A stretch of DNA of 64,000 nucleotides from Mariprofundaceae bacterium. Lineage in GTDB: Bacteria; Pseudomonadota; Zetaproteobacteria; Mariprofundales; Mariprofundaceae. The notes under the pieces were generated by a model that had not been told where the DNA came from, did no database searches, and saw only the letters and a program-made list of their open reading frames with translations. The stretch covers positions 1 through 64,000 of the forward strand of contig JAUZQO010000021.1 in the NCBI GenBank assembly GCA_030950925.1. Direction: 5' to 3'. How positions within the stretch are numbered: position 1 is the first letter of the stretch; each line of letters starts with the position of its first letter. The position numbers were made by a program, and so were the translations under genes. Below are positions 2,220 through 61,907 of this stretch, piece after piece.

Positions 2220-2281
2220 TATAGTGATTCAAGTATTAAGTTGCCCCGTGCTTTCCAAAATCTTTTATCGGGAATCTATCC
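2220..2281. repeat. Partial copy of dispersed TIR/hairpin element
   Basis: This copy begins with the terminal motif TATAGTGATTCAAGTATTAA (2220-2239) and contains one 31-nt hairpin module (2248-2278) whose left arm is decayed while the right arm still reads TCGGGAAT. It abuts a full element at 2283. Confidence 0.7.
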
Positions 2282-2282
2282 A

Positions 2283-2421
2283 TATAGTGATTCAAGTATT
2301 AAATCACCACGTCATTCCCGAAATCTTTTATCGGGAATCTAATGATAGACCCTCGATACAAGCACTCGAGGGTGACGACTGGGGAATATGGAAATGATAA
2401 TTCTATACTTGAATGACTATA
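2283..2421. mobile_element. MITE-like element with terminal inverted repeats and two hairpin modules
   Basis: The 139-bp element begins TATAGTGATTCAAGTATTAA and ends with the near-complement TATACTTGAATGACTATA. Inside are two 31-nt modules in opposite orientation. The first (2311-2341) has stem ATTCCCGA/TCGGGAAT. The second (2346-2376) has stem ACCCTCGA/TCGAGGGT when read on the minus strand. Both are flanked by GTCA and CTA. It has no coding capacity. The structure suggests a non-autonomous element or REP/BIME-like unit. No transposase is present in the window. Confidence 0.75.
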
Positions 2422-2450
2422 GACCCTCGACACAAGCACTCGAGGGTGAC
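2420..2450. repeat. Extra single hairpin module
   Basis: A further 31-nt TAG...TGAC module with the ACCCTCGA/TCGAGGGT stem follows directly on the right terminal repeat of the preceding element. The intergenic region 2196-2494 is therefore almost entirely repeat-derived. Confidence 0.75.
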
Positions 2451-3397: not shown

Positions 3398-4921
3398 ATG
3401 TTGGCAAGATTGCCTTCTGCCGCATTGCGAGGTTTGGATGCGGATCCTGTCGATGTTGAAGTGGATTTATCCCGAGGCTTACCGTGTTGGAGTATGGTTG
3501 GTTTAGCGGATGCCTCTGTGCGTGAAGCCAAAGAACGGGTGCGTTCAGCACTATTAAATAGTAACTTTGAGTTTCCCTTAGCACATATCACAGTCAATTT
3601 ATCGCCAGCAGATCAGCGCAAAGAAGGCTCATATTTTGATTTACCTGTGGCGATGGGCTTGTTGTTGGCATCAGGGCAAATCATTCCGAGTGACGAAAAT
3701 AACATGGCTATGCCCATGATGTTGGGCGAATTGGCATTGGATGGACGCTTAAATCCTATTTCAGGCGTATTGCCCTTGGTCTTATTTGCGCAACAACAAG
3801 GTTTTACATCCGTCATTGTGCCGCAAGATAATGCCAAAGAAGCGGCATTGGTGGCGGGTTTAAACATCTTGCCAGCGGATTCTTTGTTAAGTGTGGCACA
3901 GCATCTTATAGGGCATATCAGCTTGCAGCCTTATGTTTTAGAATCTCTAAGCAATGATGCCGAAGCATTTAAAAATCACTTGGATTTGGCAGATGTTCGC
4001 GGGCAACAACAAGCCAAACGTGCCTTAGAAATTACTGCTGCAGGTGGTCATAACTTATTGATGAGTGGCTCTCCAGGTGTCGGGAAAAGTATGTTGGCAG
4101 CACGCTTACCCAGTATTATTCCCGCTTTAACTATGTCCCAACGCTTGGAAGTGGCGCGTATTTATTCCATTGCCAATCATCAAAATCGCTCACCCTTATC
4201 GGATATACCACCCTTTCGTTCGCCGCATCACACATCATCGGGTGTGGCGTTGATTGGGGGTGGTTCACGCCCCAAACCGGGTGAAATATCATTGGCACAT
4301 ATGGGAATTTTGTTTTTGGATGAATTACCCGAGTTTAAGCGACAAGCCTTGGAAGTGTTGCGCCAACCCATGGAAACAGGCGAGGTGCATATTGCCCGTG
4401 CCGCCGAAACCCTAACCTTTCCAGCTCGATTTTCTTTGATTGCTGCGTTTAATCCATGTCCATGCGGGTTTTTAGGGCATCCGATCAAGGCTTGTCGTTG
4501 CAGTGATTTACAAGTTCGTCGCTATCGAGAACGCATGTCAGGGCCTTTGTTGGATCGTTTTGATTTGCGTATCCATGTGCCTCCAGTGGAACAAGATGAA
4601 CTCACCCAACGCCCCGTAGGTGAATCTTCCAAAGAAGTTGCGAAACGTGTCTTGGCTGCGCGTGCCATTCAATATCAACGGCAAGGGCAAGGCGTGAGCA
4701 ATGGGATGTTATCTGTTCGGGTCTTGGAAGACATCGCAAAACCTGATACTGATGGGCAAAAACTTTTGCATGCGGCGATGACTCGCTTTGCCTTATCTGC
4801 ACGTGCTTATCACCGTATTTTAAAAGTAGCCCGCACCATTGCAGATTTGACAGCCGAAACATCCGTATCCAGTGCGCATATTGCAGAAGCATTACAATAT
4901 CGTGGTGATGATGGTTTTTAG
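3398..4921 (+). CDS. comM: Mg-chelatase-like AAA+ ATPase ComM/YifB
   Basis: The 507-residue protein has the full ComM architecture: an N-terminal Lon-S5-like region (GLADASVREAKERVRSAL), a Walker A GSPGVGKS (about 223), Walker B ILFLDELPEF (about 305), the Cys-rich CPCGFLG...CRCS insert (about 354) and a C-terminal Mg-chelatase helical domain. ComM is a hexameric helicase that promotes branch migration during natural transformation. The length is normal. It is translationally close to ubiK. A MITE-like element follows 16 bp after its stop. Confidence 0.92.
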   Translation: MLARLPSAALRGLDADPVDVEVDLSRGLPCWSMVGLADASVREAKERVRSALLNSNFEFPLAHITVNLSPADQRKEGSYFDLPVAMGLLLASGQIIPSDENNMAMPMMLGELALDGRLNPISGVLPLVLFAQQQGFTSVIVPQDNAKEAALVAGLNILPADSLLSVAQHLIGHISLQPYVLESLSNDAEAFKNHLDLADVRGQQQAKRALEITAAGGHNLLMSGSPGVGKSMLAARLPSIIPALTMSQRLEVARIYSIANHQNRSPLSDIPPFRSPHHTSSGVALIGGGSRPKPGEISLAHMGILFLDELPEFKRQALEVLRQPMETGEVHIARAAETLTFPARFSLIAAFNPCPCGFLGHPIKACRCSDLQVRRYRERMSGPLLDRFDLRIHVPPVEQDELTQRPVGESSKEVAKRVLAARAIQYQRQGQGVSNGMLSVRVLEDIAKPDTDGQKLLHAAMTRFALSARAYHRILKVARTIADLTAETSVSSAHIAEALQYRGDDGF

Positions 4922-4937
4922 GACGAAGTTTTGAAGC

Positions 4938-5066
4938 TATAGTCGTTTAAGTATGAATACTACATTATGTTGCTGTCACCCTCGAATGCTTGTGTCGAGG
5001 GTCTATTGATAGATTCCAGACACAAGCACTCTGGAATGACGGTGGTTTAATACTTGAATCACTATA
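4938..5066. mobile_element. MITE-like element with terminal inverted repeats and two hairpin modules
   Basis: The 129-bp element runs from TATAGTCGTTTAAGTAT to ATACTTGAATCACTATA. Its first 31-nt module (4975-5005) has stem ACCCTCGA/TCGAGGGT. The second (5010-5040), in reverse orientation, has a different stem, ATTCCAGA/TCTGGAAT, with the loop GTGCTTGTG. The GTCA and CTA flanks are the same as in the other copies. Confidence 0.75.
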
Positions 5067-5115
5067 TGCGTGAATTCAAGTGACAAGTCGTTGGCAAGCT
5101 CTATCGTGCCGACGC

Positions 5116-5494
<379 letters not shown>

Positions 5495-5566
5495 GTACTT
5501 TTTTGCTAAAAAACAGACCTTTTTTATGGCATCATGCGCAGAACCTAAAATAGAGGTCTTAAACAC

Positions 5567-6640
5567 ATGTTATCTCAACACCCTACAGATGATCAACGCA
5601 TTGTCGGAATCAAAGAAGTGGTCTCACCTGAACTTGTTCATGCAGAACACCCTGTCAGCCCAATGGCTGAACAGGTGATTGTTGAAGCACGCAAAGATAT
5701 TCATCATATTATTCGTGGCGATGATGATCGTTTACTGGTCGTGGTGGGACCTTGTTCGATTCATAACCCCGATGAAGCATTGGTGTATGCCAAGCATTTG
5801 GCCGAGATCAAAGAGAAATATGCGGACACATTAAAATTGGTCATGCGGGTTTATTTTGAAAAACCACGCACGACAGTGGGCTGGAAGGGTTTAATCAATG
5901 ACCCACATTTGGATGATAGTTTTGAAATCAATCAGGGTATTCGCATCGGTCGGAAATTATTGTTAGCCATCAATAACCTAGGCATCCCCGCTGCAACAGA
6001 ATTTCTGGACTTGATTACCCCGCAATACTTTGCTGATTTGGTGAGCTGGGGCGCGATTGGTGCGCGTACCACAGAAAGCCAAGGTCATCGTGAACTGTCA
6101 TCGGGCTTGTCTTGTCCGATTGGTTTTAAAAATAGCACCGAAGGTGGCTTCCGCATTGCCATTGATGCGATTCAAGCAGCAGCCAAACCGCATCATTTTT
6201 TATCACTGACCAAAGAAGGGCGTTCGGCAATTTTTACCACGGCAGGCAATAAAGATTGTCATATTATCTTACGTGGTGGGAAAGAGCCGAATTATGGTGC
6301 AAAAGATGTGGGCAATGTCATCATGCAACTGAATGCCGCGAAGATTGATGCGGGTATTATGATTGATTTTAGCCACGCCAACAGTTTGAAACAGCATGAA
6401 CGTCAAATGATTGTAGGCGCGGATGTTTGTCAGCAAATGGCACAAGGCAACCATAAAATTATGGGTGTGATGATTGAAAGCCACTTGCATGCAGGTCGTC
6501 AAAATGTGGTGGAGGGTGAAACACTCAAGCCCGGCGTGAGCATTACGGATGCTTGCATTGCTTGGGATGATACAGTGACACTATTGGATCAACTCTCTGT
6601 TGCTGTCAAACAACGTCGTGAGGTATCCCATGAGCATTGA
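5567..6640 (+). CDS. aroG: 3-deoxy-7-phosphoheptulonate synthase (class I DAHP synthase)
   Basis: This enzyme condenses phosphoenolpyruvate and erythrose-4-phosphate in the first step of the shikimate pathway. The 357-residue length equals that of AroF/G/H enzymes. Motifs seen are VVGPCSIHNP (about 64), RVYFEKPRTTVGWKGL (about 96), GARTTESQGHRE (about 160), GFKNSTEGG (about 184) and the metal-binding DFSHANS (about 265). I cannot tell which aromatic amino acid inhibits it. It is followed by sspB with an 11-bp overlap. Confidence 0.93.
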   Translation: MLSQHPTDDQRIVGIKEVVSPELVHAEHPVSPMAEQVIVEARKDIHHIIRGDDDRLLVVVGPCSIHNPDEALVYAKHLAEIKEKYADTLKLVMRVYFEKPRTTVGWKGLINDPHLDDSFEINQGIRIGRKLLLAINNLGIPAATEFLDLITPQYFADLVSWGAIGARTTESQGHRELSSGLSCPIGFKNSTEGGFRIAIDAIQAAAKPHHFLSLTKEGRSAIFTTAGNKDCHIILRGGKEPNYGAKDVGNVIMQLNAAKIDAGIMIDFSHANSLKQHERQMIVGADVCQQMAQGNHKIMGVMIESHLHAGRQNVVEGETLKPGVSITDACIAWDDTVTLLDQLSVAVKQRREVSHEH

Positions 6641-7124
6641 TTTTAAGCAAAAAGCCAAAGCCAAACAGTTAAATGATTACTTTCAAAGTTCGGGGCGTAT
6701 TTATATTGTGGTGGATGGCACTGCGGATACTGTGGATGTACCGGAATATTTAAAGGGCGACCCGGCCTTACGTTTGGCACTGAATGTGCGCATGCGCCAA
6801 CCCATTTATATTCGCGACACTGGTGTTTCATCGGTCTTGTCTTTTTCTGGAAAAGCGCATGATTGTTTCATTCCTTTGCAATGTATTTGGGGTGCTTATG
6901 AACCCGATGGTGATTTGGAAAGTGGTTTAATTTGGGAAGATGCTGTGCCTGAAGTCATTCGTTCTGCATTGTTGGCACAAAATGGATCTGAAGATGCAAC
7001 GGCATCGGAAACTGTGGACTTGGGTATTGAAGAGACAGTAAGCCATGACATCAGCATGGTCTCAAAAATAGATGACATTCAGACTCGTCCAACCAAAGTG
7101 CCACATTTGCGGGTTGTAAAATAA
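6630..7124 (+). CDS. sspB: ClpXP specificity-enhancing adaptor SspB
   Basis: SspB tethers ssrA-tagged and other substrates to the ClpXP protease. The 164-residue product has the substrate-binding fold (LNDYFQSSGRIYIVVD, then LALNVR and the FSGKAHDCFIPLQCIWGAY strand), an acidic variable linker, and a C-terminal PHLRVVK that matches the ClpX-docking XB peptide (LRVVK) of E. coli SspB. The start at 6630 (MSIDFKQ) overlaps the end of aroG by 11 bp. In E. coli sspB sits with sspA, whereas here it is coupled to aroG and followed 1 bp later by a DUF2066-like gene. Confidence 0.88.
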   Translation: MSIDFKQKAKAKQLNDYFQSSGRIYIVVDGTADTVDVPEYLKGDPALRLALNVRMRQPIYIRDTGVSSVLSFSGKAHDCFIPLQCIWGAYEPDGDLESGLIWEDAVPEVIRSALLAQNGSEDATASETVDLGIEETVSHDISMVSKIDDIQTRPTKVPHLRVVK

Positions 7125-7125
7125 T

Positions 7126-8046
7126 ATGCCTGTGATGATGCGACTGGTGATTGCATGGCTTATGCTAACTTGGGTGAATGTTGTACAGGCAGAAGACATG
7201 CGCTTTCAAATTGAACTAAGCTTTGAAGATGCTGGCGTTTCGCCGAGTATTTCCGCTCAAGTTCAGCAGGCTTTACCACAGTTGTGGCAACGAATTATTC
7301 CACAATCTGAACAAGCCGATTTGCATGGCTTGCAAGCGATGTCTTTTTTAAAAAGTATTCGTCCGCATGGTTTGACGAGTAGCATTACCTTTAATGAACA
7401 ACGTGTGTGGCAAGCTTTGGATGCACGCTCCATTGTCTATATTCGTCCTTTGCCAAGTTTTTATATGACCTTGGATATATTGAATGCTTTGGGGCACCAT
7501 AACACCCGTATGGAAAGCGAACTGCAAATATATTTGAATGAACTCAGCCAAACATGGGGCATTCAACGCAGCGATCATGGTCCTTTATTGGCGCTGAATG
7601 TGCAATGGTTGAACGATGTGCAATTTTATATTTCAGCTGTTCAACAAGGGCAGACCACACAACGTGATCAAAATCGTTGGGCGCAAGGTGTGGATGCGAT
7701 GCAACAGCTTAAAGCCAGTTTACAACGGTTATTATTGCATGTTCGTAATCAATATGTGGTTCAAGCAGTCGCTGCTTCCTCTCAAAATATTGAGCCTGCC
7801 GCCATTGAAACCCAGACATTTCATTTACATGTTGAAGGTCAGGCATCATTGGCCAACCAAATTTTATTGGAAACGGCGCTACAATCAGATACCTGGGTGG
7901 CATCCATCACCCCCTTATTGCTTGAACCCAACAGTCAAACCTACTTAATGGTGGTGAAGAAAGCCCCCGAACTTTGGCTTGAAACTTGGTTTTTACAGCA
8001 TGGTATGACAGCCAGCATGGGGCTGGAAGGCTGGTTGGCACAATAA
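7126..8046 (+). CDS. DUF2066-like exported protein
   Basis: The 306-residue product has a signal peptide (residues 1-22, cleavage after VQA). The mature region (FQIELSFEDAG, then a long alpha/beta part) resembles DUF2066 proteins, which in gammaproteobacteria commonly sit next to hda. That context is repeated here with pgsA and hda downstream. No catalytic motif is evident, and the function is unknown. The stop overlaps the next start by one base (TAATG), showing translational coupling. Confidence 0.6.
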   Translation: MPVMMRLVIAWLMLTWVNVVQAEDMRFQIELSFEDAGVSPSISAQVQQALPQLWQRIIPQSEQADLHGLQAMSFLKSIRPHGLTSSITFNEQRVWQALDARSIVYIRPLPSFYMTLDILNALGHHNTRMESELQIYLNELSQTWGIQRSDHGPLLALNVQWLNDVQFYISAVQQGQTTQRDQNRWAQGVDAMQQLKASLQRLLLHVRNQYVVQAVAASSQNIEPAAIETQTFHLHVEGQASLANQILLETALQSDTWVASITPLLLEPNSQTYLMVVKKAPELWLETWFLQHGMTASMGLEGWLAQ

Positions 8047-8603
8047 TGAATCAACATGTGTTAAGTGTTCCCAATATATTAACACTGATGCGTATTTTGA
8101 TGACACCTGTGATTGTGTACATGGTGTTAACCCATCAGCCTTGGTTGGCTGTGATATTGATGGTGATTGCGGGTGTGACAGATATGTTGGATGGTGCGAT
8201 TGCACGGTATTTCAATCAACGAACCACTGTCGGTGCTTACCTTGATCCTTTGGCAGACAAAATTTTATTGGTCAGCTTGTTTGTGAGCTTGTTTGTTGTG
8301 GGCAAGGTGCCACTGTTTATTTTTTTAGCCGTGATTTTTCGTGATGCAATTATTATTTTTGGGGCGATTGCTTATGAAATTGTGACACGTCAACTCACCA
8401 TGGAGCCAAGTTTAATATCCAAAGCAACCACATGTATGCAAATTTTTTATGTTGCCTTACTTTTGCTGGATATGGCAACACCCATTGAAGGTATATGGGT
8501 AAGCTTGGTGATGTGGTTGGCCTTTGTGTTAACCTGCATGTCAGGTGTGCATTATATGGTGACATGGACTCACAAAGCTGTTGGGCATGAAAAGGCGCAA
8601 TAA
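8046..8603 (+). CDS. pgsA: CDP-diacylglycerol--glycerol-3-phosphate 3-phosphatidyltransferase
   Basis: PgsA makes phosphatidylglycerol phosphate, the committed step to phosphatidylglycerol and cardiolipin, in the inner membrane. The 185-residue protein has the CDP-alcohol phosphotransferase signature D-G-x2-A-R-x8-G-x3-D-x3-D (DGAIAR...GAYLDPLAD, about residues 46-70) and several membrane segments. The start at 8046 (MNQHVLSVPNILTLMR) fits the family N-terminus. Confidence 0.92.
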   Translation: MNQHVLSVPNILTLMRILMTPVIVYMVLTHQPWLAVILMVIAGVTDMLDGAIARYFNQRTTVGAYLDPLADKILLVSLFVSLFVVGKVPLFIFLAVIFRDAIIIFGAIAYEIVTRQLTMEPSLISKATTCMQIFYVALLLLDMATPIEGIWVSLVMWLAFVLTCMSGVHYMVTWTHKAVGHEKAQ

Positions 8604-8607
8604 GTCG

Positions 8608-9297
8608 ATGAAAATGCAACAACAATACCTTCACTTTTCCTCACCGTTGAAGCATGACTACCATATGTGGGTTCACCATAGTGGTACCGAAATCGCTTGT
8701 GCCAAGCTTGCTATATGGATGAATCAAGGTGGGATTTTATGGCTAACTTCCGATGAACCTGCTGGGAAAAGTCACCTAATCCATGCTTTGGCGCAAGAAT
8801 ACTCCCAACTCAAGCGTATCGAGCCAGGTAAACGACTCACCCCCATCAAACAAGTGGCTGTTTGGTTGGATATCTTAAAGGATACAAACTTATGGGTACT
8901 GGATTTACATGCAGGTAAACTACCAAAGCGAACCGCTTTGGCTTTGTTTCATTTGATTGAACGCGCCAAAGAAAGTCAACATGCCTTGTTGATTTCGTGG
9001 CGTTGTCCCGATACAGACTTAAAACCTTCGGAGCTTGCCAGCCGTTTGCGTATGATGGAACAGGTGAAAATTCAGGCACCTGAAACGAATGCTGATTTAA
9101 GACGTGTCTTGCAAGCCACTGCACGCCAGTTGCATTGGGACATTCCTGAAGGCTTGATTAAAGTGTTGATTCAACATTTACCGCGTAATTTGGGCATTCA
9201 GATAGATGCACTTCACCGTTTGGAAGCTGCATCACTCGAAGAACGGACGCGTTTAACGCAAGTTTGGGCTAAAAAGAAGCTGCAACTTCTGAAGTAA
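8608..9297 (+). CDS. hda: DnaA-related regulator Hda
   Basis: Hda is a DnaA-like AAA+ protein that, with the sliding clamp, stimulates hydrolysis of DnaA-ATP. The 229-residue product starts KMQQQYLHFSSPLKHDYHMW. It has a Walker A-like DEPAGKSHL (about 50), a Walker B-like LWVLDLHAGK (about 92, with H in place of the usual acidic residue) and a DnaA-type sensor 2/lid region. An N-terminal clamp-binding QQQYLHF is visible. ATG codons at 8587 and 8614 are alternative starts. It follows pgsA by 4 bp. The clamp (dnaN) and dnaA are also in this window. Confidence 0.8.
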   Translation: MKMQQQYLHFSSPLKHDYHMWVHHSGTEIACAKLAIWMNQGGILWLTSDEPAGKSHLIHALAQEYSQLKRIEPGKRLTPIKQVAVWLDILKDTNLWVLDLHAGKLPKRTALALFHLIERAKESQHALLISWRCPDTDLKPSELASRLRMMEQVKIQAPETNADLRRVLQATARQLHWDIPEGLIKVLIQHLPRNLGIQIDALHRLEAASLEERTRLTQVWAKKKLQLLK

Positions 9298-9310
9298 GAA
9301 GGTGTTTTGG

Positions 9311-9757
9311 TCACCAATAAATTAACCAAGTAAACATCATCAAAGCTGTGCTAGAATCTCGCCACCAAGCTTGCCAGTACCACCATGGTTGATGCGTTTG
9401 TTGCCACAACAAGGGTGTGATGGATAAGGCTCGTAAGCCCAATGTTGCTGCCAAAAACCAAGCCGCTGATAGATGTTGTAAAACAAAAATAACCATATAA
9501 CAACTGAATAAAACCCATGCAATATTCATCACAAGATCCGCCACGCCATATCGCTCCGCCAATACAGCATCACTCACAGTGAAAACAATGAGTAATAAAG
9601 ATGCGGAAATCAGCCAATTCTTTTCAAAACTTGTTCCCCAAATGGGCTCTAAGCCAAGATATGGTGCCAGTGGCCAGCATAAAACGGGCAGAATGAGAGC
9701 CATACTTGTGGCACTATAGAGTTGCTTAAAAAGCGATGGTGTGGATTGCTTTGTCAA
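9311..9757 (-). CDS. Small integral membrane protein, unknown function
   Basis: The 148-residue protein is very hydrophobic, with about four predicted transmembrane segments (near residues 17-35, 48-64, 73-95 and 130-147), and is rich in Trp. I do not recognise a family. It overlaps the upstream yacG gene by 4 bp, so it is the last gene of a zapD-yacG transcript. It converges on hda with a 13-bp gap. Confidence 0.6.
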
Positions 9758-9939
9758 TGGGTGTTGGCTTCATCATCAGGCATTGAAGTTGCATCCCCCG
9801 CAATGCAATAACTCCCATCAGCCCAGCGTGATAAATCAAGAGTACGGCAACGTTCGGAGCAGAATGGAAAATAAAGACCATTGCGGGAGATCCCTTTTTT
9901 GCATAAGGGGCATTTGAACTGCGTTGTTTTTTGCGTCAT
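9754..9939 (-). CDS. yacG: DNA gyrase inhibitor YacG
   Basis: YacG is a 61-residue zinc protein that binds GyrB and inhibits gyrase. The ligands C10-x2-C13 (KCPLCKKG) and C27-x3-C31 (FCSERCR) are present, followed by the family motif [12 protein letters not shown]. It overlaps zapD by 4 bp upstream and the membrane protein by 4 bp downstream. The zapD-yacG pairing is conserved in gammaproteobacteria. Confidence 0.93.
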
Positions 9940-10712
9940 AAAATGGGTACCAACATACGGTAGTAAGAAAGATCTTGATCATAAGGCGTTTGTGTTTTGC
10001 CTGCTGACCATTGTTGAAAGCGAATGCGCACAACATGCTGGTTACCTGAAAATTCGGGGGTAATGCCTGATTGTACGGCTGAGGTTGGTAAACCTACAAT
10101 CAATAAGCCATGTTTTTTATCAGAACAGGTCGGTTGAAGTTGATCCGAACCATGTCGCGCCAATTCTTCCGTCCAAGGGACAAAATCGTGTAAAATATCA
10201 TCAAGGTGACTGATAATGGCATGAATATCTTGTAAGGATTCATTGAGTTGCTCTTGAATCCCCAATGTTTGCCAAAAAATAGGTAACACCTTTGGGTAAA
10301 AGAGACGGTGACCCAACCAATCCTGTTTTTTATGGCAATTGATCCATGATTGAATGACACCATCGTTGTACATAAAATCCAAGGCCTTTGGTAACGTTTT
10401 TGCCAAGACCTTTTCATATTCAGAAAGGCTCGCATGTGCTTCAAGAATTTGTTGTTTAAAGGCTGTGTTTTGCCTGCTTAAATTTTTTAAGTTTTTTTGA
10501 ATGGCATGAATCAAGCCAATAATCTCTGGTACGACAGGTTTACGCGCAGCACTGCCCAACAATGATTCTTGTAAGTCATGAATGGCCTGTAACCAGCCAT
10601 ACACATCATCGTGCAACTTGGCATATTCCAAACATTGCAAGGCATTCCGGCATTCCAAAAAGGATTGCATACGTGGTGTCAGTGCAAAAGAAAAACGGAT
10701 AAGATGGTTCAT
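9936..10712 (-). CDS. zapD: Cell division protein ZapD
   Basis: ZapD bundles FtsZ filaments at the division ring. The 258-residue, helix-rich product begins [21 protein letters not shown], a close match to the family N-terminus (F-x-P-L-x-E-R-x-R). It ends with the beta-rich [12 protein letters not shown]-type segment. The order zapD-yacG supports the call. Confidence 0.85.
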
Positions 10713-10748
10713 AGGGTGATGGTATACTTAGGCTGCGATGCCAAAGTG

Positions 10749-11186
10749 TTACAGCCAAGCATCAATCATGACCGTAATTTCTTTATATACAGCATGAAAA
10801 TATGCTTCATTTTTACCCATAGGATCATGCACTGTTTGGCCGCCGACAGGCTGTGAAATCAAAAAAACTTTACCAATGCTTGCGGGGCGCATTTTACTTA
10901 AATGTTGGCGTTGCCCTTGTTCCATCACCATAATCAAAGCGGCACGATCCACATCAGGCGCAAGCAAGGTTTGCGAAATATGTTTGCTCATATCGACACC
11001 AAAATCCATGCCCACTTTCTGCGCCGTAGCAGGCACCTTGCGCCCTGGCATAGCGAGAAGTCCGCGACTAAAACATTCAGATTCGCCCCCCAGCTCTTGC
11101 AAACATAAACGCATATAATATTCCGCAAAGGGGCTTCGGCACATATTTCCAGCACAAATCATCATGATGGGGGAGGGTAGAATCAT
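10749..11186 (-). CDS. Low-molecular-weight protein tyrosine phosphatase family protein
   Basis: The 145-residue product has the P-loop CAGNMCRSP near the N-terminus (C-x4-C-R-S) and the late acid motif DPMGKNEAYFHAVY, as in the LMW-PTP/Wzb group. These enzymes dephosphorylate tyrosine kinases, for example those controlling polysaccharide export. The start could instead be one of the Met codons at residues 8-9. It lies 37 bp after dnaQ on the same strand. A second LMW phosphatase is at 46.2 kb. Confidence 0.82.
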   Translation of the reverse strand: MILPSPIMMICAGNMCRSPFAEYYMRLCLQELGGESECFSRGLLAMPGRKVPATAQKVGMDFGVDMSKHISQTLLAPDVDRAALIMVMEQGQRQHLSKMRPASIGKVFLISQPVGGQTVHDPMGKNEAYFHAVYKEITVMIDAWL

Positions 11187-11223
11187 GGGTTCTCCTGTTC
11201 TGTTTTAATGGGGAGGCAATATT

Positions 11224-11955
11224 TCATTGCCAATCATCCCATATCGCATGCCCACCACTTTCTTCATCAATGCGTTGCATCAAAGCTTGATGGGCTTGCA
11301 TTTCTTTGGGTGTTACTGTCAGTGTAGCACGTTGTAAAATATCTGATGTTTGCCGTTGTTTATCTTGGCTGTGGTGAATTTCAGGTAGCTGAACAAAACT
11401 GGAAGCAGGTTGCGACACGGCATCCATACTCAGTGAAAATTGATTGCCACCTGTCATCATCAAATACATTTCAGCCAACAGTTCTGCATCCAACAATGCG
11501 CCATGAAATACACGGTGCCCACGTTCCACACCATAGCGATCACACAGGGCATCCAAACTATTGCGTTGATGTGGATGGCGTTTTCGTGCCATAGCCAACG
11601 AATCAATCACGGGGATATTGCTAATATTGGGTAAACCTGCCTGTGACAATTCATACATGATAAAGCCCAAGTCAAACGGCGCATTATGAATGACCAAGGT
11701 TGCCCCCTCAATAAAGGCCAAAAATTCTTGAGCAATCTCTGGAAATGTGGGTTCATCCTTAACTTTGGCATCATCAATGCCATGAATACGCACAACCACA
11801 TTGGGAATGGGCCGGCATGGGTGAATCAATCGGTGAAACTTTGTATTTGTTTGAATGGCGCGCTGCGTGACTTCCACAGCACCAATTTCAACCATACGAT
11901 CACCTGACTGTGGGGATAAACCTGTAGTTTCTGTATCTAACATAACAAAACGCAT
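11224..11955 (-). CDS. dnaQ: DNA polymerase III epsilon subunit (3'-5' exonuclease)
   Basis: This is the proofreading subunit of the replicative polymerase. The 243-residue protein has DEDDh motifs: Exo I DTETTG (residues 7-12), Exo II HNAPFDLGF (about 90) and Exo III H-x4-D as HGALLDAELLAEMY (about 154). The C-terminal segment after about 190 is a likely alpha-subunit tether and includes VQLPEIHH. Its length matches E. coli DnaQ. Confidence 0.92.
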   Translation of the reverse strand: MRFVMLDTETTGLSPQSGDRMVEIGAVEVTQRAIQTNTKFHRLIHPCRPIPNVVVRIHGIDDAKVKDEPTFPEIAQEFLAFIEGATLVIHNAPFDLGFIMYELSQAGLPNISNIPVIDSLAMARKRHPHQRNSLDALCDRYGVERGHRVFHGALLDAELLAEMYLMMTGGNQFSLSMDAVSQPASSFVQLPEIHHSQDKQRQTSDILQRATLTVTPKEMQAHQALMQRIDEESGGHAIWDDWQ

Positions 11956-11971
11956 GGTGGCAGTATAAGCT

Positions 11972-13551: not shown

Positions 13552-14052
13552 ATGCTTTACAAATGGCTCATCGTAGCAAGTTATCTATGCAGTATGTTGG
13601 TCGGAATCGACGTTGCGGAAGCAGCCAATCGTGCGACAAGCGTAGAAGTTGATCAAAAAACACATCAAGCACGTGCTCCCTATATTGATTTTGAACATTT
13701 ACGCGACCCTTTTGCTTCTTATTTGGTAACCATTGCTATGCGAGGTCAACGCCTATTAAAAACGCAGGAATACAAGCTTGCGAACCGTAAGCGTGAACCC
13801 TTGGAAGTATTTGATTTAAATACACTCTTGTTGGTAGGTATTTATCAGATGGGGGATAGGCATGTGGCCATGGTGCAAGACAGCCAAGGTAAAGGGTATA
13901 TGGTGAAACAAGGTAGCTATATGGGAAAAAAAAGTGGACGTATTGAAAAAATAGATTCAGATACTATCTATGTGGTAGAAAAAATCCTTAACATAGAAGG
14001 ACAAATTATTGACCAGCAAGTGACCTTAACCCTGAAAGAAGTGAATGACTAA
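13552..14052 (+). CDS. PilP-like type IV pilus assembly protein
   Basis: The 166-residue product has an N-terminal hydrophobic export segment (to VAEA, about residue 24) and then an RDPF motif. The C-terminal beta-rich part (LEVFDLNTLLLVGIY, VQDSQGKGYMVKQGSYMG, GRIEKIDSDTIYVVEKI) matches the PilP domain that links the inner-membrane pilus platform to the PilQ secretin. Unlike classical PilP there is no clear lipobox. No other pilMNOQ gene is adjacent, which is unusual. TTGGAGG precedes the start. It overlaps nth by 8 bp. Confidence 0.7.
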   Translation: MLYKWLIVASYLCSMLVGIDVAEAANRATSVEVDQKTHQARAPYIDFEHLRDPFASYLVTIAMRGQRLLKTQEYKLANRKREPLEVFDLNTLLLVGIYQMGDRHVAMVQDSQGKGYMVKQGSYMGKKSGRIEKIDSDTIYVVEKILNIEGQIIDQQVTLTLKEVND

Positions 14053-15786: not shown

Positions 15787-15858
15787 GTCACCCTCGAATG
15801 CTTCTATCGAGGGTCTATTGGAAAACATAGATTCCCGATAAAAGATTTCGGGAATGAC
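15787..15858. repeat. Pair of dispersed hairpin modules without terminal repeats
   Basis: Two 31-nt modules face each other: 15787-15817 with stem ACCCTCGA/TCGAGGGT and 15828-15858 with stem ATTCCCGA/TCGGGAAT on the minus strand. The terminal TATAGT-type repeats found elsewhere are not recognisable. The pair sits between the bioB stop and the hemF start. Confidence 0.75.
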
Positions 15859-34111: not shown

Positions 34112-34717
34112 ATGGCAATATCATTACAAAAAGGTCAGCGTATTTCTCTCGAAAAAGATACGGGTAACCCGCTTCTTCAGGTTTGTGTGGGTGTGAACTG
34201 GGGTGCGATTGAAAAGAAGGGTTTTTTTGGCGGTATGAAAAAAGTTGCTGTTGACTTGGATGCAAGTTGTGCAACCTTTGATTCTAACAACAAGCCACTT
34301 GATGTGGTATGTTTTAGTCAATTAAGCGCGCAAGGGATTCAGCATTCGGGCGATGATTTAACAGGTGATATGGATGGTGATGATGGCTTGGATAATGAGG
34401 TGATTGTTGTGGACTTATCCAAAGTTCATCCTAGCACCCATCAAATTGTTTTTGTGTTGAATTCATACCAAGGTCAGGATTTTAAAGATATTCCTTTTGC
34501 ATCGATTCGTTTGTACGAAGGCACACCGTCGAGAGTTGATAATGTTTTTGCTGCATACGATATATCCAATGACAGCAAGTTTTATGGTTCAGTATCCATG
34601 GTCATGGGAAAATTTTATAAAAAAGATGGTCAATGGCGTTTTGTAGCCATTGGAGATGCTGTCAGTGACAGAAGTTTAAAAGATACCATTAAAACAGTGA
34701 CCCATAAATACCTATAA
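34112..34717 (+). CDS. TerD-family stress protein (TerZ/TerX-like)
   Basis: The 201-residue protein has one TerD domain. It starts MAISLQKGQRISLEK and has a calcium-site region VAVDLDASCATFD (about 46) and DLTGDMDGDDGLDNE (about 80), rich in acidic residues as in Ca2+-binding TerD proteins. The usual GGDFDLDAS is replaced by KKVAVDLDAS after an inserted Gly/Phe loop. It opens the Ter island. These proteins are cytoplasmic and are linked to tellurite, oxidative and phage stress. Confidence 0.88.
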   Translation: MAISLQKGQRISLEKDTGNPLLQVCVGVNWGAIEKKGFFGGMKKVAVDLDASCATFDSNNKPLDVVCFSQLSAQGIQHSGDDLTGDMDGDDGLDNEVIVVDLSKVHPSTHQIVFVLNSYQGQDFKDIPFASIRLYEGTPSRVDNVFAAYDISNDSKFYGSVSMVMGKFYKKDGQWRFVAIGDAVSDRSLKDTIKTVTHKYL

Positions 34718-34844
34718 GATTAAAAGGGTTTTAATGTTTATTTATTCACTTTTACATCATAGTTGTTTACGCTTCTACTCACTTTTATTGTTTATGTTTT
34801 AATCAAAATATGAACGGTAAATTTTTAAATTATAGGAGAAAAAA

Positions 34845-35420
34845 ATGTCTGTATCCTTAAAAAAAGGTGGCAATGTAAGTCTAGAAAAAACATCTCCAGG
34901 TATCAGTAAAATTCTTATCGGTTTGGGTTGGGATGAGCGTGCGACAGATGGCGGTGATTTTGATTTGGATGCCAGCGTCTTTTTGTTAAAAGATGATGGA
35001 AAAGTAAGATCAGATGAAGACTTTATTTTTTATAATAACCTATCATCCACATGCAAATCTGTGGTTCACCAAGGTGATAACAGAACAGGTGCTGGTGATG
35101 GTGATGATGAAGCTGTTAAGGTTGATTTGACACAAGTTCCAGCAGACGTGAAAAAGATTACGGTGGCTGTGACCATTCATGAAGCACAAGCAAGAAACCA
35201 GAATTTTGGTCAGGTTGCCAATGCTTTTATGCGTATTGTGAATGATGAAACCAATGTAGAGGTGGCGCGCTTTGATTTGTCGGAAGACTATTCCATCGAA
35301 ACAGCCATGATTTTTGGTGAAGTTTACCGTCACAATGGTGATTGGAAATTTAAAGCCATTGGACAAGGTTATGAAGGTGGCTTGAAAGCCTTGGCGCAAG
35401 GTTTTGGCATTAGTATTTAA
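34845..35420 (+). CDS. terD: TerD-family tellurium/stress protein
   Basis: The 191-residue protein is a canonical TerD domain: [14 protein letters not shown] at the start, [13 protein letters not shown] (about 42), [22 protein letters not shown] (about 83) and [20 protein letters not shown] (about 158). The acidic loops form the family's paired Ca2+ sites. AGGAG precedes the ATG. It is the second of two diverged TerD proteins here, as is usual for Ter clusters. Confidence 0.92.
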
Positions 35421-35546
35421 ATGATAAAGGGTGTTTTAGCGATGTGTTAAAACATCCTTTATTCTATGGTTTGCAGCACAGGCTGTTTTTTGTATGTAGT
35501 TCAATAAATGGCATTTCTGCCTTTTAAAAGGTGAATAACAGTCGTT

Positions 35547-36653
35547 ATGGTCGCTTCTAAAAAAAATGAGCATTACACCCGAAGGATTCAATCAGGTGTT
35601 TTACAACTGACACTTTCAGATGGTCATGATCGCATGGATGAGTTGATGGATTTTGCCAGTCGAGAAAATCCCAAAAGACACTTTTCTTTTGTGAGTAAAG
35701 TTCTGGGTAAACATATTCCTGTTCAGCCGCTATTGATGCGGAAAATTTATGATGAATTGTCTGATTTATGTGCGCTGGACGGTGATACTTATGTGGTGGC
35801 CATGTCTGAAATGGGCGTGGGTCTTGGCGCAGGCGTTGCGGATAGTTTATCGAAGATTCACCCTGAATATGATATATATTTTCAGCACACAACACGCAGT
35901 CAACTGGGGAGAAAAGCATGGTTGAACTTGGATGAAGTTCACTCGCATGCTGTTAATCATATTTTGTATGAACCCGTTATTGAACTTCGTCAAAAAATAA
36001 AGGCATCAACAACATTGGTGATTGTTGATGATGAAATAACGACAGGTCGAACGGTTTTTCTTTTAGCTTCTAGGGTGATGCAGAAAGTTCCAAATATTCA
36101 AAAAATTATTTTTGTTTCATTGGTGAATTGGTTAAGCGATGACAACACACAAAAATTTAATGAGCTTGGCATCCAAGTTGAATTTATTCAGCTCATGAAG
36201 GGTGAGTTTACATTCAAAAAACATGATGATTTTTATACTGCTTTGCCAGCCAAAGTGGATAGCAGTATCAGCTCCTCAACATGTCGGCAAGATTTGGGGC
36301 GGTTGGGGTTGAAGATGCCATATCATCTGGACTTACCAACCCGTTATGCCGATGATTTAAAACAAGATAAGGTGGTTGTCGTGGGTCATGGTGAGCATCT
36401 ATACTTGCCCTTTTTGCTTGCAGAAGACTTACAGAAACAAGGCGTTGATGTTGTTTTTCAATCGACAACCCGCTCTCCTGTATTGGAAGGTGATGCGATC
36501 AAGCATCGTATCTGTTTTGAAGTCGATGATGATAAAGAGCATTATATTTATAATTTCCCAACGGATCGAAAGGCTTTAGCCATGAGTGAAAGTGATGATA
36601 GCCTTGGTTTTCACCATCATATTCAGCAGCGACCATTTAAGGTGCCTTTATAA
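35547..36653 (+). CDS. Phosphoribosyltransferase with C-terminal TRSP domain (Ter-associated)
   Basis: The 368-residue protein has an N-terminal PRTase fold with the PRPP loop VIVDDEITTGRT (about residue 154) and a C-terminal TRSP domain carrying the name-giving STTRSPVLEG (about 307). Such PRTase-TRSP proteins belong to the biosynthetic module of Ter operons proposed by Anantharaman, Iyer and Aravind (2012) to make a nucleoside-like metabolite. The substrate is unknown. The HAD gene starts immediately after its stop, so they are coupled. Confidence 0.85.
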   Translation: MVASKKNEHYTRRIQSGVLQLTLSDGHDRMDELMDFASRENPKRHFSFVSKVLGKHIPVQPLLMRKIYDELSDLCALDGDTYVVAMSEMGVGLGAGVADSLSKIHPEYDIYFQHTTRSQLGRKAWLNLDEVHSHAVNHILYEPVIELRQKIKASTTLVIVDDEITTGRTVFLLASRVMQKVPNIQKIIFVSLVNWLSDDNTQKFNELGIQVEFIQLMKGEFTFKKHDDFYTALPAKVDSSISSSTCRQDLGRLGLKMPYHLDLPTRYADDLKQDKVVVVGHGEHLYLPFLLAEDLQKQGVDVVFQSTTRSPVLEGDAIKHRICFEVDDDKEHYIYNFPTDRKALAMSESDDSLGFHHHIQQRPFKVPL

Positions 36654-37379
36654 ATGAGTCAGGTTATCGTTTTTACCGATTTGGATGATACACTGATTCA
36701 GACACGCCGTAAATTGCCTGAAAATGCTAGTTTTTCATTGGGAGCAACGGATAAAGAAGGCTTACCTTTATCCTTTATGACCAAATCTCAGGAAACTATG
36801 TTAAAGATTTTTTCGCAAAGTGACGCCATCATTATTCCTGTGACAGGAAGGAATACAAGTGCGCTTGATCGCGTCGCTTATGCGTTTAATCATTACCGTG
36901 TGGTTTCACATGGGGCGTTGGTCTTACAAAAAAATGGTGATATTTGTACGAAGTGGTTGGAGAAAGTGGCGCATCAGTTTGATGCATGGAAGGCGTTGAT
37001 GTTCTCTTGTAATGAGGAAATTCTAAGCTTGATTAAGGATTACCAACTGAATGCAAGAAGCCGCGTGATTACCGATCATGATATTGATGTGTATGTTTCT
37101 GTGAAAGGTGAGCCTGAGGCATTAACATTTATTCGGGAACACAATACGCATGGTCAACATTTTACACACCATGAAAATGCTCATAACTATGCGTTATTAC
37201 CGCCGTATGCGAGCAAGAAAAAAGCAGTGGAACATATCCATCAAATGCTTAATTTGGGTGCAGATCATTTGATTATCGGCTTGGGTGATAGTTTGTCTGA
37301 CCTTGAATTTATGACATCATGTCAATTTGCGATGTTTCCACAACACAGCCAAATTAAACGTAGTTTCCCCTATGCCTAA
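36654..37379 (+). CDS. HAD-superfamily phosphatase (Ter-associated)
   Basis: The 241-residue product has HAD motif I FTDLDDTLIQT (about residue 7), motif II TGRNTS (about 64), a Lys in motif III and motif IV GLGDSLSDLEFM (about 211). The C2-type cap resembles sucrose-phosphate phosphatases. In Ter biosynthetic modules an HAD enzyme is expected to dephosphorylate the metabolite. It overlaps the following gene by 8 bp. Confidence 0.85.
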   Translation: MSQVIVFTDLDDTLIQTRRKLPENASFSLGATDKEGLPLSFMTKSQETMLKIFSQSDAIIIPVTGRNTSALDRVAYAFNHYRVVSHGALVLQKNGDICTKWLEKVAHQFDAWKALMFSCNEEILSLIKDYQLNARSRVITDHDIDVYVSVKGEPEALTFIREHNTHGQHFTHHENAHNYALLPPYASKKKAVEHIHQMLNLGADHLIIGLGDSLSDLEFMTSCQFAMFPQHSQIKRSFPYA

Positions 37380-38463
37380 GAAGAATACGCCTTTAAAGGG
37401 TAGTTATGCAGCAGAAGACTGTCTTTTTTTATTAAAACCCATTGAACCTCGCTACCATAGTATCGAAAATAAAGAGATGCTGATTCAGACGGGGCAACTT
37501 CATTATTCAGAGATGATTCACCAAGAAAAACCACCAACAGAAGCATATACGGCGTTGTTTTTAGAACTTACAGAACAATATAAGCAACGTCTCGCATCGG
37601 AAGTGGTCGTTTTAGCACAAAAAATAGCACAACTTAGAGCTGAAAATATTACCATTGTTTCGCTAGCGCGCGCAGGAACACCTGTGGGTGTGCTTTTGCA
37701 GCGAGCATTGGGCGGTTTATTGCACCGTCAATCCACTCATTTTTCCATTTCCATTATTCGTGACCGAGGCATTGATGAGGTGGCATTGGATTATATATTA
37801 CAACAGCATACACCTGAAAGCATTGTATTTGTGGATGGTTGGACTGCCAAAGGTACGATTACACATGAGTTGAAAACATCGATTCAAGCATACAATCATG
37901 CCAAGGGTGTTGGTATTTCAAGTGACTTGTTTGTGATTTCAGATATTGGTGGTTATGCTGATATTCAAGCAACACGGGATGATTATGCGATTCCAAGTGC
38001 TTTGATGAATTCAACGGTTTCAGGGCTTATATCTCGCTCCATTCTAAACCAACAAATTCAAGCGGGTGATTTTCATGGTTGTGTGGAATATTCACATTTA
38101 TCAAGCTATGACCGATCCAATTGGTTTGTGGATGAAATTTCAAATGAAATGAAAAAAATATCCGTAAAAGCAGAGGTGGAATGTATTCAGGAATCAAAGG
38201 ATATGCGTCGAAATATTGTGCGTGAATTTCTTTTATATATACAAGAAACCTACCATATATCCGATATAAACCGTATTAAACCGGGTATTGCAGAAGCGAC
38301 ACGAACCTTATTAAGGCGTGTACCGGATGTGTTGATTGTTCGGAATATGAAAGATAGTAATGTTCGTCATTTGATTCACCTTGCGACAGAGAAAAATATT
38401 TGTGTGAAAGAATATGGAAAGATGCCTTTTGGTGCTTGCTCTCTGATTAAAGATGTGGTTTAA
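37372..38463 (+). CDS. StiP-family PRTase-like protein with C-terminal PELOTA domain (Ter-associated)
   Basis: The 363-residue product starts PKKNTPLKGSYAAEDC. Its main domain is the StiP/PRTase_1 type (SLARAGTPVGVLLQRAL, FSISIIRDRGIDEVALDYIL, FVDGWTAKGTITHEL). The last 75 residues (GIAEATRTLLRRVPDVLIV through KMPFGACSLI) match the PELOTA_1 RNA-binding-like domain. Databases name the family cysteine protease StiP, but the Ter literature treats it as a phosphoribosyltransferase-like enzyme. The start at 37372 lies within the HAD stop region. Confidence 0.83.
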   Translation: MPKKNTPLKGSYAAEDCLFLLKPIEPRYHSIENKEMLIQTGQLHYSEMIHQEKPPTEAYTALFLELTEQYKQRLASEVVVLAQKIAQLRAENITIVSLARAGTPVGVLLQRALGGLLHRQSTHFSISIIRDRGIDEVALDYILQQHTPESIVFVDGWTAKGTITHELKTSIQAYNHAKGVGISSDLFVISDIGGYADIQATRDDYAIPSALMNSTVSGLISRSILNQQIQAGDFHGCVEYSHLSSYDRSNWFVDEISNEMKKISVKAEVECIQESKDMRRNIVREFLLYIQETYHISDINRIKPGIAEATRTLLRRVPDVLIVRNMKDSNVRHLIHLATEKNICVKEYGKMPFGACSLIKDVV

Positions 38464-38578
38464 ATATCACCATTCACCTGACCTTCATTGACCCCATCGT
38501 AGTGTTAGAACATAATCCAAGGAAATGCCTGAATGTTCAGGCTTGCTGTTAAAAAAAAGATACAAATAGGATGATATT

Positions 38579-39730
38579 TTGGAAATCATGACCTCTCTTA
38601 TACTGGTGTTTATCGCAACACTGGTGATTGCTAAAGCCTGCGATGGCTTTGAAGTTGCAGCGGATTATTTAGGGCGCAACATGTCCGATGGTGTGAAGGG
38701 TGCAACCATCAATGCCATTGGTAGTTCAACGCCTGAACTCTTTGCGACCTTTATATTTTTATTCCTCTTCAATGAAACCACAGGTTTTGCAGGTGGTATC
38801 GGCACAACAGCGGGTAGTGCGGTATTCAACACCATGGTGATTCCAGCATTGAGTATTTTAGTTGCACTCAAAATGTTTAAAATTAGGGGCGTTGTAGTTT
38901 CTAAGAAAGTCATATTAAGAGATGGCTTGATGTTGATTGCGGCCGAATTTATTTTGATTGTGACCATTGGTGAACGCCTTGAGTGGTGGCATGGTATGAT
39001 GTTGATGCTTTTGTATGTTGGATATGCAGGTATCTTATTTTTCTCCATGAGTCCTAAATCAGAAGCTGATGATAATAGCAAAGAGGAAGAAGCGGATGAC
39101 AATGACAATGGTGAACCCTATGTAGATTCCAATCGCCTACTATCTTTTCTTAAATTAGAACTGGAAGATGCAATCATTGCTGGGAATAAACTACAAAACA
39201 GCAATGCCTGGCTATTGTTGGGTATATCCACAACCTTTATTGCGCTTGCCTGTTATATTTTGGTATATGGTTGTGAAACTTTTGGTCATGCTTTGGGTAT
39301 TCAGGGTTATTTTGTTGCGGTGATTTTAGCGGCTGCGGCAAGCAGTGTGCCTGATACGATTTTATCCATGAAGGATGCTAAAAAAGGCAATTATGATGAT
39401 GCGGTTGCCAATGCTTTGGGTAGCAATATTTTTGATATTTGTTTTGCATTGGGTCTGCCATTATTTTTGTATACACTAATATATGGTGCAATTATTATCC
39501 CCAAAGAGGTTGTGGGTGACATCACTGAATTACGAATTTTATTATTGATTTTGACCATCGGTTCTTTTTTAATCTTTTTCTTTGGTTCGAGTATGGGTAA
39601 AATTAAAGCTTATATGTTGTTGTCCTTCTATGCTTTATTTACCATTTATATTGTATCAAGAGCTTATGCCTTTGCATGGTCACAACCCATTGCTGATTTT
39701 TTACATGCCATACAGTCGCATTTACAATAA
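38579..39730 (+). CDS. CaCA-family cation/Ca2+ antiporter
   Basis: The 383-residue integral membrane protein has two inverted alpha repeats: NAIGSSTPELFATF (about residue 45) and AAASSVPDTILSMKDA with NALGSNIFDICFALG (about 257-300). A cytoplasmic acidic loop (about 160-180, EEEADDND) joins the halves and could sense cations. TTG at 38579 has AGGA 8 bp upstream. An ATG at 38588 is less well placed. It sits between StiP and TerB, where other Ter clusters have TerC, so it is probably the island's ion transporter. Confidence 0.85.
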   Translation: MEIMTSLILVFIATLVIAKACDGFEVAADYLGRNMSDGVKGATINAIGSSTPELFATFIFLFLFNETTGFAGGIGTTAGSAVFNTMVIPALSILVALKMFKIRGVVVSKKVILRDGLMLIAAEFILIVTIGERLEWWHGMMLMLLYVGYAGILFFSMSPKSEADDNSKEEEADDNDNGEPYVDSNRLLSFLKLELEDAIIAGNKLQNSNAWLLLGISTTFIALACYILVYGCETFGHALGIQGYFVAVILAAAASSVPDTILSMKDAKKGNYDDAVANALGSNIFDICFALGLPLFLYTLIYGAIIIPKEVVGDITELRILLLILTIGSFLIFFFGSSMGKIKAYMLLSFYALFTIYIVSRAYAFAWSQPIADFLHAIQSHLQ

Positions 39731-39830
39731 ATTTTGGGTCGTAGTTTTTTGGACAAGCATAAACATCAGGGTTGATAAGCTGTTGTAAAAGTAGTAAAGA
39801 AATGAAAGATACGATAACAAAGGAGTCATA

Positions 39831-40283
39831 ATGTTTTCAACTTTTTTAGATAAAGCTCGGAACAAATTTAGTGAATTAAAAACAGGTGCGTTGAAATATA
39901 AATCCAAAGAGTTTCTTCATGCTGCCTTGGGTGGTAGTGCTTTGGTCATTATGGCTGATGGTAGTATTGATGCGCAGGAAAAATCAAAGATGATGAGCTT
40001 TATTGAGAATAATGAAGCTTTATCCATTTATGATACGTCAGAGGTCGTCAAAACATGGAAAGATTATATCGATACGCTTGAAATGGATGCTGATATTGGC
40101 GAAGCCAAAGCGATGTCCGCACTGGGTAAAATGAAGGGCAAAGATGAAGAATCACGTTTGGTATTAAGAATGGTGTGTGCGATTGGTGCATCCGATGGTG
40201 ATTTTGATAAGGATGAAAAAAGAGTCGCGGCTAAAATTGCCTTGGAGCTTGGTCTTAACCCTGCTGATTTTGATTTGGCTTAA
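39831..40283 (+). CDS. terB: TerB-family tellurite resistance protein
   Basis: The 150-residue helical protein has the TerB domain: ALVIMADGSIDAQEKSKM (about 38-55) and the repeated acidic ASDGDFDKDEKRVAAKIALELGL (in parts, about 123-145). Both DGxxxxxE segments are the family's metal-binding sites. AAGGAG precedes the ATG. A strong terminator follows and ends the Ter island transcript. Confidence 0.9.
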   Translation: MFSTFLDKARNKFSELKTGALKYKSKEFLHAALGGSALVIMADGSIDAQEKSKMMSFIENNEALSIYDTSEVVKTWKDYIDTLEMDADIGEAKAMSALGKMKGKDEESRLVLRMVCAIGASDGDFDKDEKRVAAKIALELGLNPADFDLA

Positions 40284-61795: not shown

Positions 61796-61907
61796 GTCAC
61801 CCTCGAGTGCTTGTATCGAGGGTCTTAGATGCCCGATAAAAGATTTTGGGTATGACGGCTAGGACAAGATTTTAGCATGATGCTAATTTAATACTTACAT
61901 GACTATA
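61796..61907. repeat. Partial TIR/hairpin element between ATP-grasp and decarboxylase genes
   Basis: Two head-to-head 31-nt modules are present: 61796-61826 with stem ACCCTCGA/TCGAGGGT, and 61826-61856, which is decayed by two mismatches. A right terminal repeat TTAATACTTACATGACTATA (61888-61907) remains, and the left terminal repeat is not recognisable. It begins 10 bp after the ATP-grasp stop. Confidence 0.7.

What the first reader, a model, noticed from the sequence alone, without database searches (positions are those of the whole stretch)
2248..2450. 31-nt hairpin modules arranged head to head inside TIR-bounded elements
Every copy in the window is built from a 31-nt unit GTCA-stem-9 nt loop-stem-CTA. 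Units pair in opposite orientation, and two copies (2283-2421, 4938-5066) are framed by TATAGT-type terminal inverted repeats of about 17-20 bp. This looks like a miniature mobile element combined with REP/BIME logic.
Basis: seen in the sequence. Interest (0 to 1): 0.65.

Follow-up and report, generated by a model that had tools for sequence, protein, structure and literature searches.

The report
Self-targeting mini-transposons carrying paired REP hairpins
A marine Zetaproteobacterium carries about a hundred tiny, recently mobile DNA elements that appear to borrow an IS630 transposase; each carries a pair of short hairpins of a repeat class (CGTC REPs) with no known mover, and new copies often land exactly between the hairpins of old copies.

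Summary
The window holds ten 31-nt units (GTCA-stem-9-nt loop-stem-CTA) in GTCA-outward pairs; two pairs (2283-2421, 4938-5066) lie inside TATAGT terminal repeats. The genome has at least 150 units; 84 of 90 adjacent units share this orientation; 41 complete elements were extracted from 1.08 Mb. They are IS630/Tc1-type MITEs. The genome encodes an IS630 transposase (HTH_Tnp_IS630 plus DDE_3); the MITE ends match IS630 ends of this genus at 17-19 of 21 bases. Thirteen insertions, including the window's 4938-5066 copy, are empty in a relative (92.5% identical) or the reverse, nearly all with one TA. The hairpins are CGTC-tagged REPs in head-to-head dimers, a superfamily published as lacking a transposase; the 9-nt loop and CTA tail fit none of its four families. 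14 of 41 elements sit exactly at the inner TA of another dimer (window: a 139-bp copy inside an older one at 2220-2450). A second, unrelated MITE family (ACTGATGTTACGCA ends, 5-bp duplications) carries the same dimer. Best reading: CGTC REP dimers travel as MITE cargo and act as landing pads. New variant of known kinds; transposase pairing and target preference are inferred from sequence.

The parts
2283..2421 (+). inner 139-bp MITE, complete, TA at both ends
   Evidence: TIRs and dimer; 137/139-bp subfamily copies elsewhere in the genome
2220..2240 (+). left TIR of the older, interrupted element
   Evidence: 20 of 21 identical to the TIR
2248..2278 (+). degenerate left REP unit of the older element
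   Evidence: unit alignment; left flank of the nested insertion
2420..2450 (-). right REP unit of the older element; its TA is shared with the end of the inner copy
2311..2341 (+). REP unit, ATTCCCGA stem type
2346..2376 (-). REP unit, ACCCTCGA stem type
2401..2421 (-). right TIR of the inner MITE (TATAGTCATTCAAGTATAGAA)
4938..5066 (-). 129-bp MITE between a comM-like gene and rnpB, complete
   Evidence: about 24 copies of this subfamily, most nearly identical; empty site GAAGC-TA-TGCGTG in relative G002
4938..4958 (+). right-type TIR of the 129-bp MITE (TATAGTCGTTTAAGTATGAAT)
5046..5066 (-). left-type TIR of the 129-bp MITE (TATAGTGATTCAAGTATTAAA)
4975..5005 (+). REP unit
5010..5040 (-). REP unit
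15787..15858 (.). REP dimer without recognisable TIR, 10-nt spacer
61796..61856 (.). REP dimer, units abutting
61887..61907 (-). single surviving TIR beside the dimer at 61796-61856

Best explanation
These are non-autonomous IS630/Tc1-type MITEs (129, 137-139 and about 184-202 bp subfamilies) moved in trans by an IS630 transposase that cuts at their TATAGT ends and inserts at TA, duplicating it (insertion at TA is shown by empty sites; the enzyme's role is inferred from matching ends). Each carries a head-to-head heterodimer of CGTC-tagged REP hairpins as cargo, which is how this REP family spreads here (inferred). The inner TA of the dimer is also a favoured landing site, so copies nest in one another (the pattern is shown; that the transposase prefers the site, rather than that such insertions survive best, is inferred).
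For: 98 TIR copies in a 1.97-Mb genome, 0 in the reversed control; 41 complete elements, the 129-bp ones mostly identical in unrelated flanks; 13 orthologous empty sites, nearly all with one TA; IS630 copies with ends matching at 17-19 of 21 bases, the MITE129 left and right ends each 18/21 to the corresponding end of an own-genome IS630; HTH_Tnp_IS630 and DDE_3 in the own genome; 14 of 41 elements inside dimers at the same TA, P = 4e-24 over all TA, 4e-13 over intergenic TA, 6e-6 over intergenic TA of matching context; 14 of 15 nested insertions hit 2 of the 13 TA sites of an element.
Against: Relative G002 shows only 3 of 32 elements nested this way, close to what an intergenic background would allow. 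G090 has 49 TIR-plus-CGTC matches but no IS630 HTH match. The 1.08-Mb sample was chosen because it contains copies. 12 of 88 dimers have no recognised TIR. No complete copy of the best-matching own IS630 type was seen. No transposition assay.
Confidence: 0.75

Rival explanations
1. REPIN model: the hairpin dimer is itself the mobile unit, moved by a Y1 (RAYT-type) transposase, and the TATAGT repeats are incidental flanks.
For: Dimer layout resembles REPINs; Y1_Tnp genes occur in many relatives; 12 dimers have no TIR.
Against: Empty sites span the whole TIR-to-TIR element; no unit near any of 20 Y1_Tnp loci; the tag is CGTC, not GTAG.
Confidence: 0.07
2. Mobile IS630 MITE, but nesting reflects survival: insertions into old elements are harmless, and the inner TA merely fits a short ATAG-like preference.
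For: Non-nested sites favour A before and G/T after the TA, as in the dimer; G002 shows little nesting.
Against: With intergenic background and matching context 3.6 expected, 14 seen; other TA sites in the same elements are almost never hit.
Confidence: 0.3
3. Static regulatory or structural repeats (terminators, RNA stabilisers) kept by selection, with mobility long past.
For: Mostly in tandem or convergent intergenic gaps; strong RNA fold, z = -6.0; compensatory stems.
Against: Presence/absence differences between close species and near-identical copies.
Confidence: 0.05

Closest known systems
CGTC-tagged REP superfamily (Di Nocera et al. 2013, PMC3733652; includes Neisseria dRS3, Rickettsia RPE-4/6)
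   Same: CGTC tag, A:T at the stem base, head-to-head heterodimers, intergenic.
   Different: 9-nt loop and CTA tail instead of 4-5 nt and mostly CCA; carried inside MITEs with a candidate transposase, where the paper found none.
IS630/Tc1-mariner MITEs; experimentally studied relative ISY100 (PMC2170065); Nezha in cyanobacteria (named in PMC3733652)
   Same: TA target duplicated on insertion; about 950-bp partner IS with imperfect inverted repeats.
   Different: Interior is a REP dimer; the partner IS has two frames that meet at an A8-A9 run, where ISY100 encodes a single protein.
IS elements that target REPs: IS1397, IS621, ISPpu9, ISPsy8 and others (Tobes and Pareja 2006, PMC1525189)
   Same: REP palindromes used as insertion site.
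   Different: Listed families are IS3, IS110, IS4, IS256 and IS5, not IS630; here the inserting element carries the target itself.
Anabaena variabilis GTAG-15 dimers inside TATAGGA...TCCTATA palindromes (PMC3733652)
   Same: REP dimer centred in a TATAG-ended inverted repeat.
   Different: Other REP superfamily; no mover, empty sites or nesting are described in the passages read.
Correia elements (CREE/NEMIS) of Neisseria (from memory)
   Same: Miniature element with ends beginning TATAGTG, recalled.
   Different: Interior not compared here; recalled as lacking a REP dimer.

Membership tests
IS630-type MITE | terminal inverted repeats shared with an IS630 element | tested here: met
   17-19 of 21 for best pairs
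IS630-type MITE | TA target duplication | tested here: met
   13 empty sites, nearly all with one TA; nested sites heal to intact dimers
IS630-type MITE | small, no coding capacity | tested here: met
   129-202 bp
IS630-type MITE | mobilised in trans by the transposase | not testable with these tools
   needs a transposition assay
CGTC REP superfamily | CGTC tag | tested here: met
   C before GTCA in 209 of 259 units
CGTC REP superfamily | predominantly head-to-head dimers (tag outward) | tested here: met
   84 of 90 adjacent units
CGTC REP families 1-4 | loop of 4-5 nt, tail mostly CCA | tested here: not met
   9-nt loop, CTA tail; so a further family of the superfamily, not one of the four
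REPIN/RAYT system | GTAG tag | tested here: not met
   CGTC instead
REPIN/RAYT system | RAYT gene flanked by the repeat | tested here: not met
   20 Y1_Tnp loci without a unit; not all Y1 matches were read

The most novel reading that the evidence does not exclude
CGTC REPs have no transposase of their own because they spread as cargo of unrelated MITE families, and in return give those MITEs a built-in landing pad: a self-targeting element that directs new copies into old ones and so spares the host's genes.
Probability: 0.4. Interest if true: 0.7.

Novelty: new variant of a known kind. Interest (0 to 1): 0.5.

Why it matters
The 2013 survey that defined CGTC REPs left open how they move. This genome offers a concrete, testable answer (hitch-hiking on IS630 MITEs, plus a second MITE family) and adds IS630-type elements to those seen to land in REPs. 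It would also be a bacterial case of an element that carries its own target.

Tried and rejected
Rfam at gathering thresholds found only RNase P in the window. RAYT as mover: no support. A mover for the second MITE family (ACTGATGTTACGCA ends) was not found in the fetched half of the genome. An exact 46-base search of named genomes found nothing, records near the window's genome possibly being left out. A stem-blind unit selection kept only 33 distinct units, still paired above shuffles, 0.93 against 0.86. Survival alone as the cause of nesting was considered and kept as a rival.

Full report
Check of the observation. The window has ten 31-nt units of the form GTCA-stem-9 nt-stem-CTA, in pairs with GTCA outward, most often with 4 nt between the inner CTA and TAG. 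Compensatory stem changes support a hairpin. The 21-nt end TATAGTGATTCAAGTATTAAA occurs 5 times in the window against 0.00 expected and 98 times in the genome against 0 for the reversed control. A covariance model found at least 150 units in the genome, its scoring limit. I read 1.08 Mb around the copies; the sample is therefore biased to regions with copies.

Anatomy. The commonest cluster is TIR-dimer-TIR. Forty-one complete elements were listed: about 24 of a 129-bp subfamily, most nearly identical, about 12 of 137-139 bp, a few of other lengths up to 202 bp. Window 4938-5066 is a 129-bp copy and 2283-2421 a 139-bp copy. The latter interrupts an older element at 2220-2450: its left flank ends ...GGAATCTATCCA and its right flank begins GACCCTCGACAC, so leaving it out with one TA gives a dimer centre TCTA-TCCA-TAGA.... 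Of 90 adjacent units, 84 have the tag outward. Of 88 contiguous dimers, 62 have at least one TATAGT-type end within 75 nt, 18 at least one ACTGATGTTACGCA end, 12 neither; random positions give about 1.6% and 0.6% per side.

Mobility. The comM-rnpB junction of relative G002 reads GAAGC-TA-TGCGTG without the 129-bp element. A filtered comparison found 8 insertions of G000 that are empty in G002 and 5 the other way, with the flanks overlapping by the 2 bp of the target. Not all are equally clean: the C47 site aligns less well on the right, the C10 site is itself inside a repeat, and one G000 site shows TG where TA is expected. Aligned stretches of the two genomes average 92.5% identity.

Mover. 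PF13358 matched in the own genome (C29, and a remnant on C22) and in several relatives. The C29 copy (L094) is 948 bp with ends TATAGTGAATCAA; it interrupts a reading frame that appears to continue across one TA (read by eye). It has two frames that meet at an A9 run, matching HTH_Tnp_IS630 and DDE_3. A second own type, seen only as end fragments (C37, C69), has a left end 18 of 21 identical to the MITE129 left end and a right end 18 of 21 identical to its right end, keeping the ATTCAAG/GTTTAAG asymmetry. Frameshifting is inferred from the A-run. No full copy of that second type was seen.

Nesting. Fourteen of 41 complete elements sit at the inner TA of a dimer, at offset 29 or 35 from GTCA, one at 34; most heal to a dimer, three have only one recognisable half. 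One further copy (C9) is nested elsewhere in an element arm (by eye). Chance, by the strictest background used, is 6e-6. Insertion sites elsewhere favour A before and G/T after the TA. In G002 only 3 of 32 are nested, so the effect is strong in one genome only. Target preference and survival cannot be separated here.

Hairpins. The preceding base is C in 209 of 259 units, giving the CGTC tag of Di Nocera et al. [quoted passage not shown] Loop and tail differ from their four families. They mention REP dimers inside palindromes in A. variabilis and H. neapolitanus as outside the scope of their paper. Tobes and Pareja 2006 (PMC1525189) list REP-targeting IS of five families, not IS630. ISY100 shows that an IS630 transposase inserts almost only at TA and duplicates it (PMC2170065).

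Second carrier. Twelve elements with ACTGATGTTACGCA ends, five with exact 5-bp duplications, carry units of the same kind, mostly as dimers, so the dimer is present in unrelated MITEs. How it entered is unknown.

Spread. The TIR-plus-CGTCA pattern occurs in 9 of 78 genomes of the class, in abundance in G000, G002 and G090, with different hairpins and spacers in other members. A stricter form matched 6 of 399 genomes of the phylum, all in the same family.

Possible effects. Elements lie mostly between genes by a rough ORF call (one of 41 inside an ORF) and fold strongly; a regulatory effect is possible and untested.

Noticed in passing
window 4938-5116: The 129-bp insertion, absent in relative G002, lies about 50 bp upstream of rnpB (RNase P RNA, 5116-5498) and might alter its expression.
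   Followed up: partly
L062 (G000:C40) 13659-13787: One otherwise near-identical 129-bp copy has a double, compensating stem change (CTCGA/TCGAG to CTTGA/TCAAG), which could mean hairpin-templated correction.
   Followed up: no
L084 (G000:C70) 3893-11959: Clusters of dimers with abutting units and a different flank (CCCAATC ... GAGCGTGTGGG), a third, BIME-like arrangement.
   Followed up: no
G000 C16, C17, C32, C41, C42, C48, C56, C60, C62, C63, C75: Second MITE family with ACTGATGTTACGCA ends; exact 5-bp duplications, all beginning with TA, in five of twelve; mover unknown.
   Followed up: partly
window 34349-40281: GGTGATGATGG-type direct repeats, perhaps an Asp/Gly-rich repeat protein.
   Followed up: no
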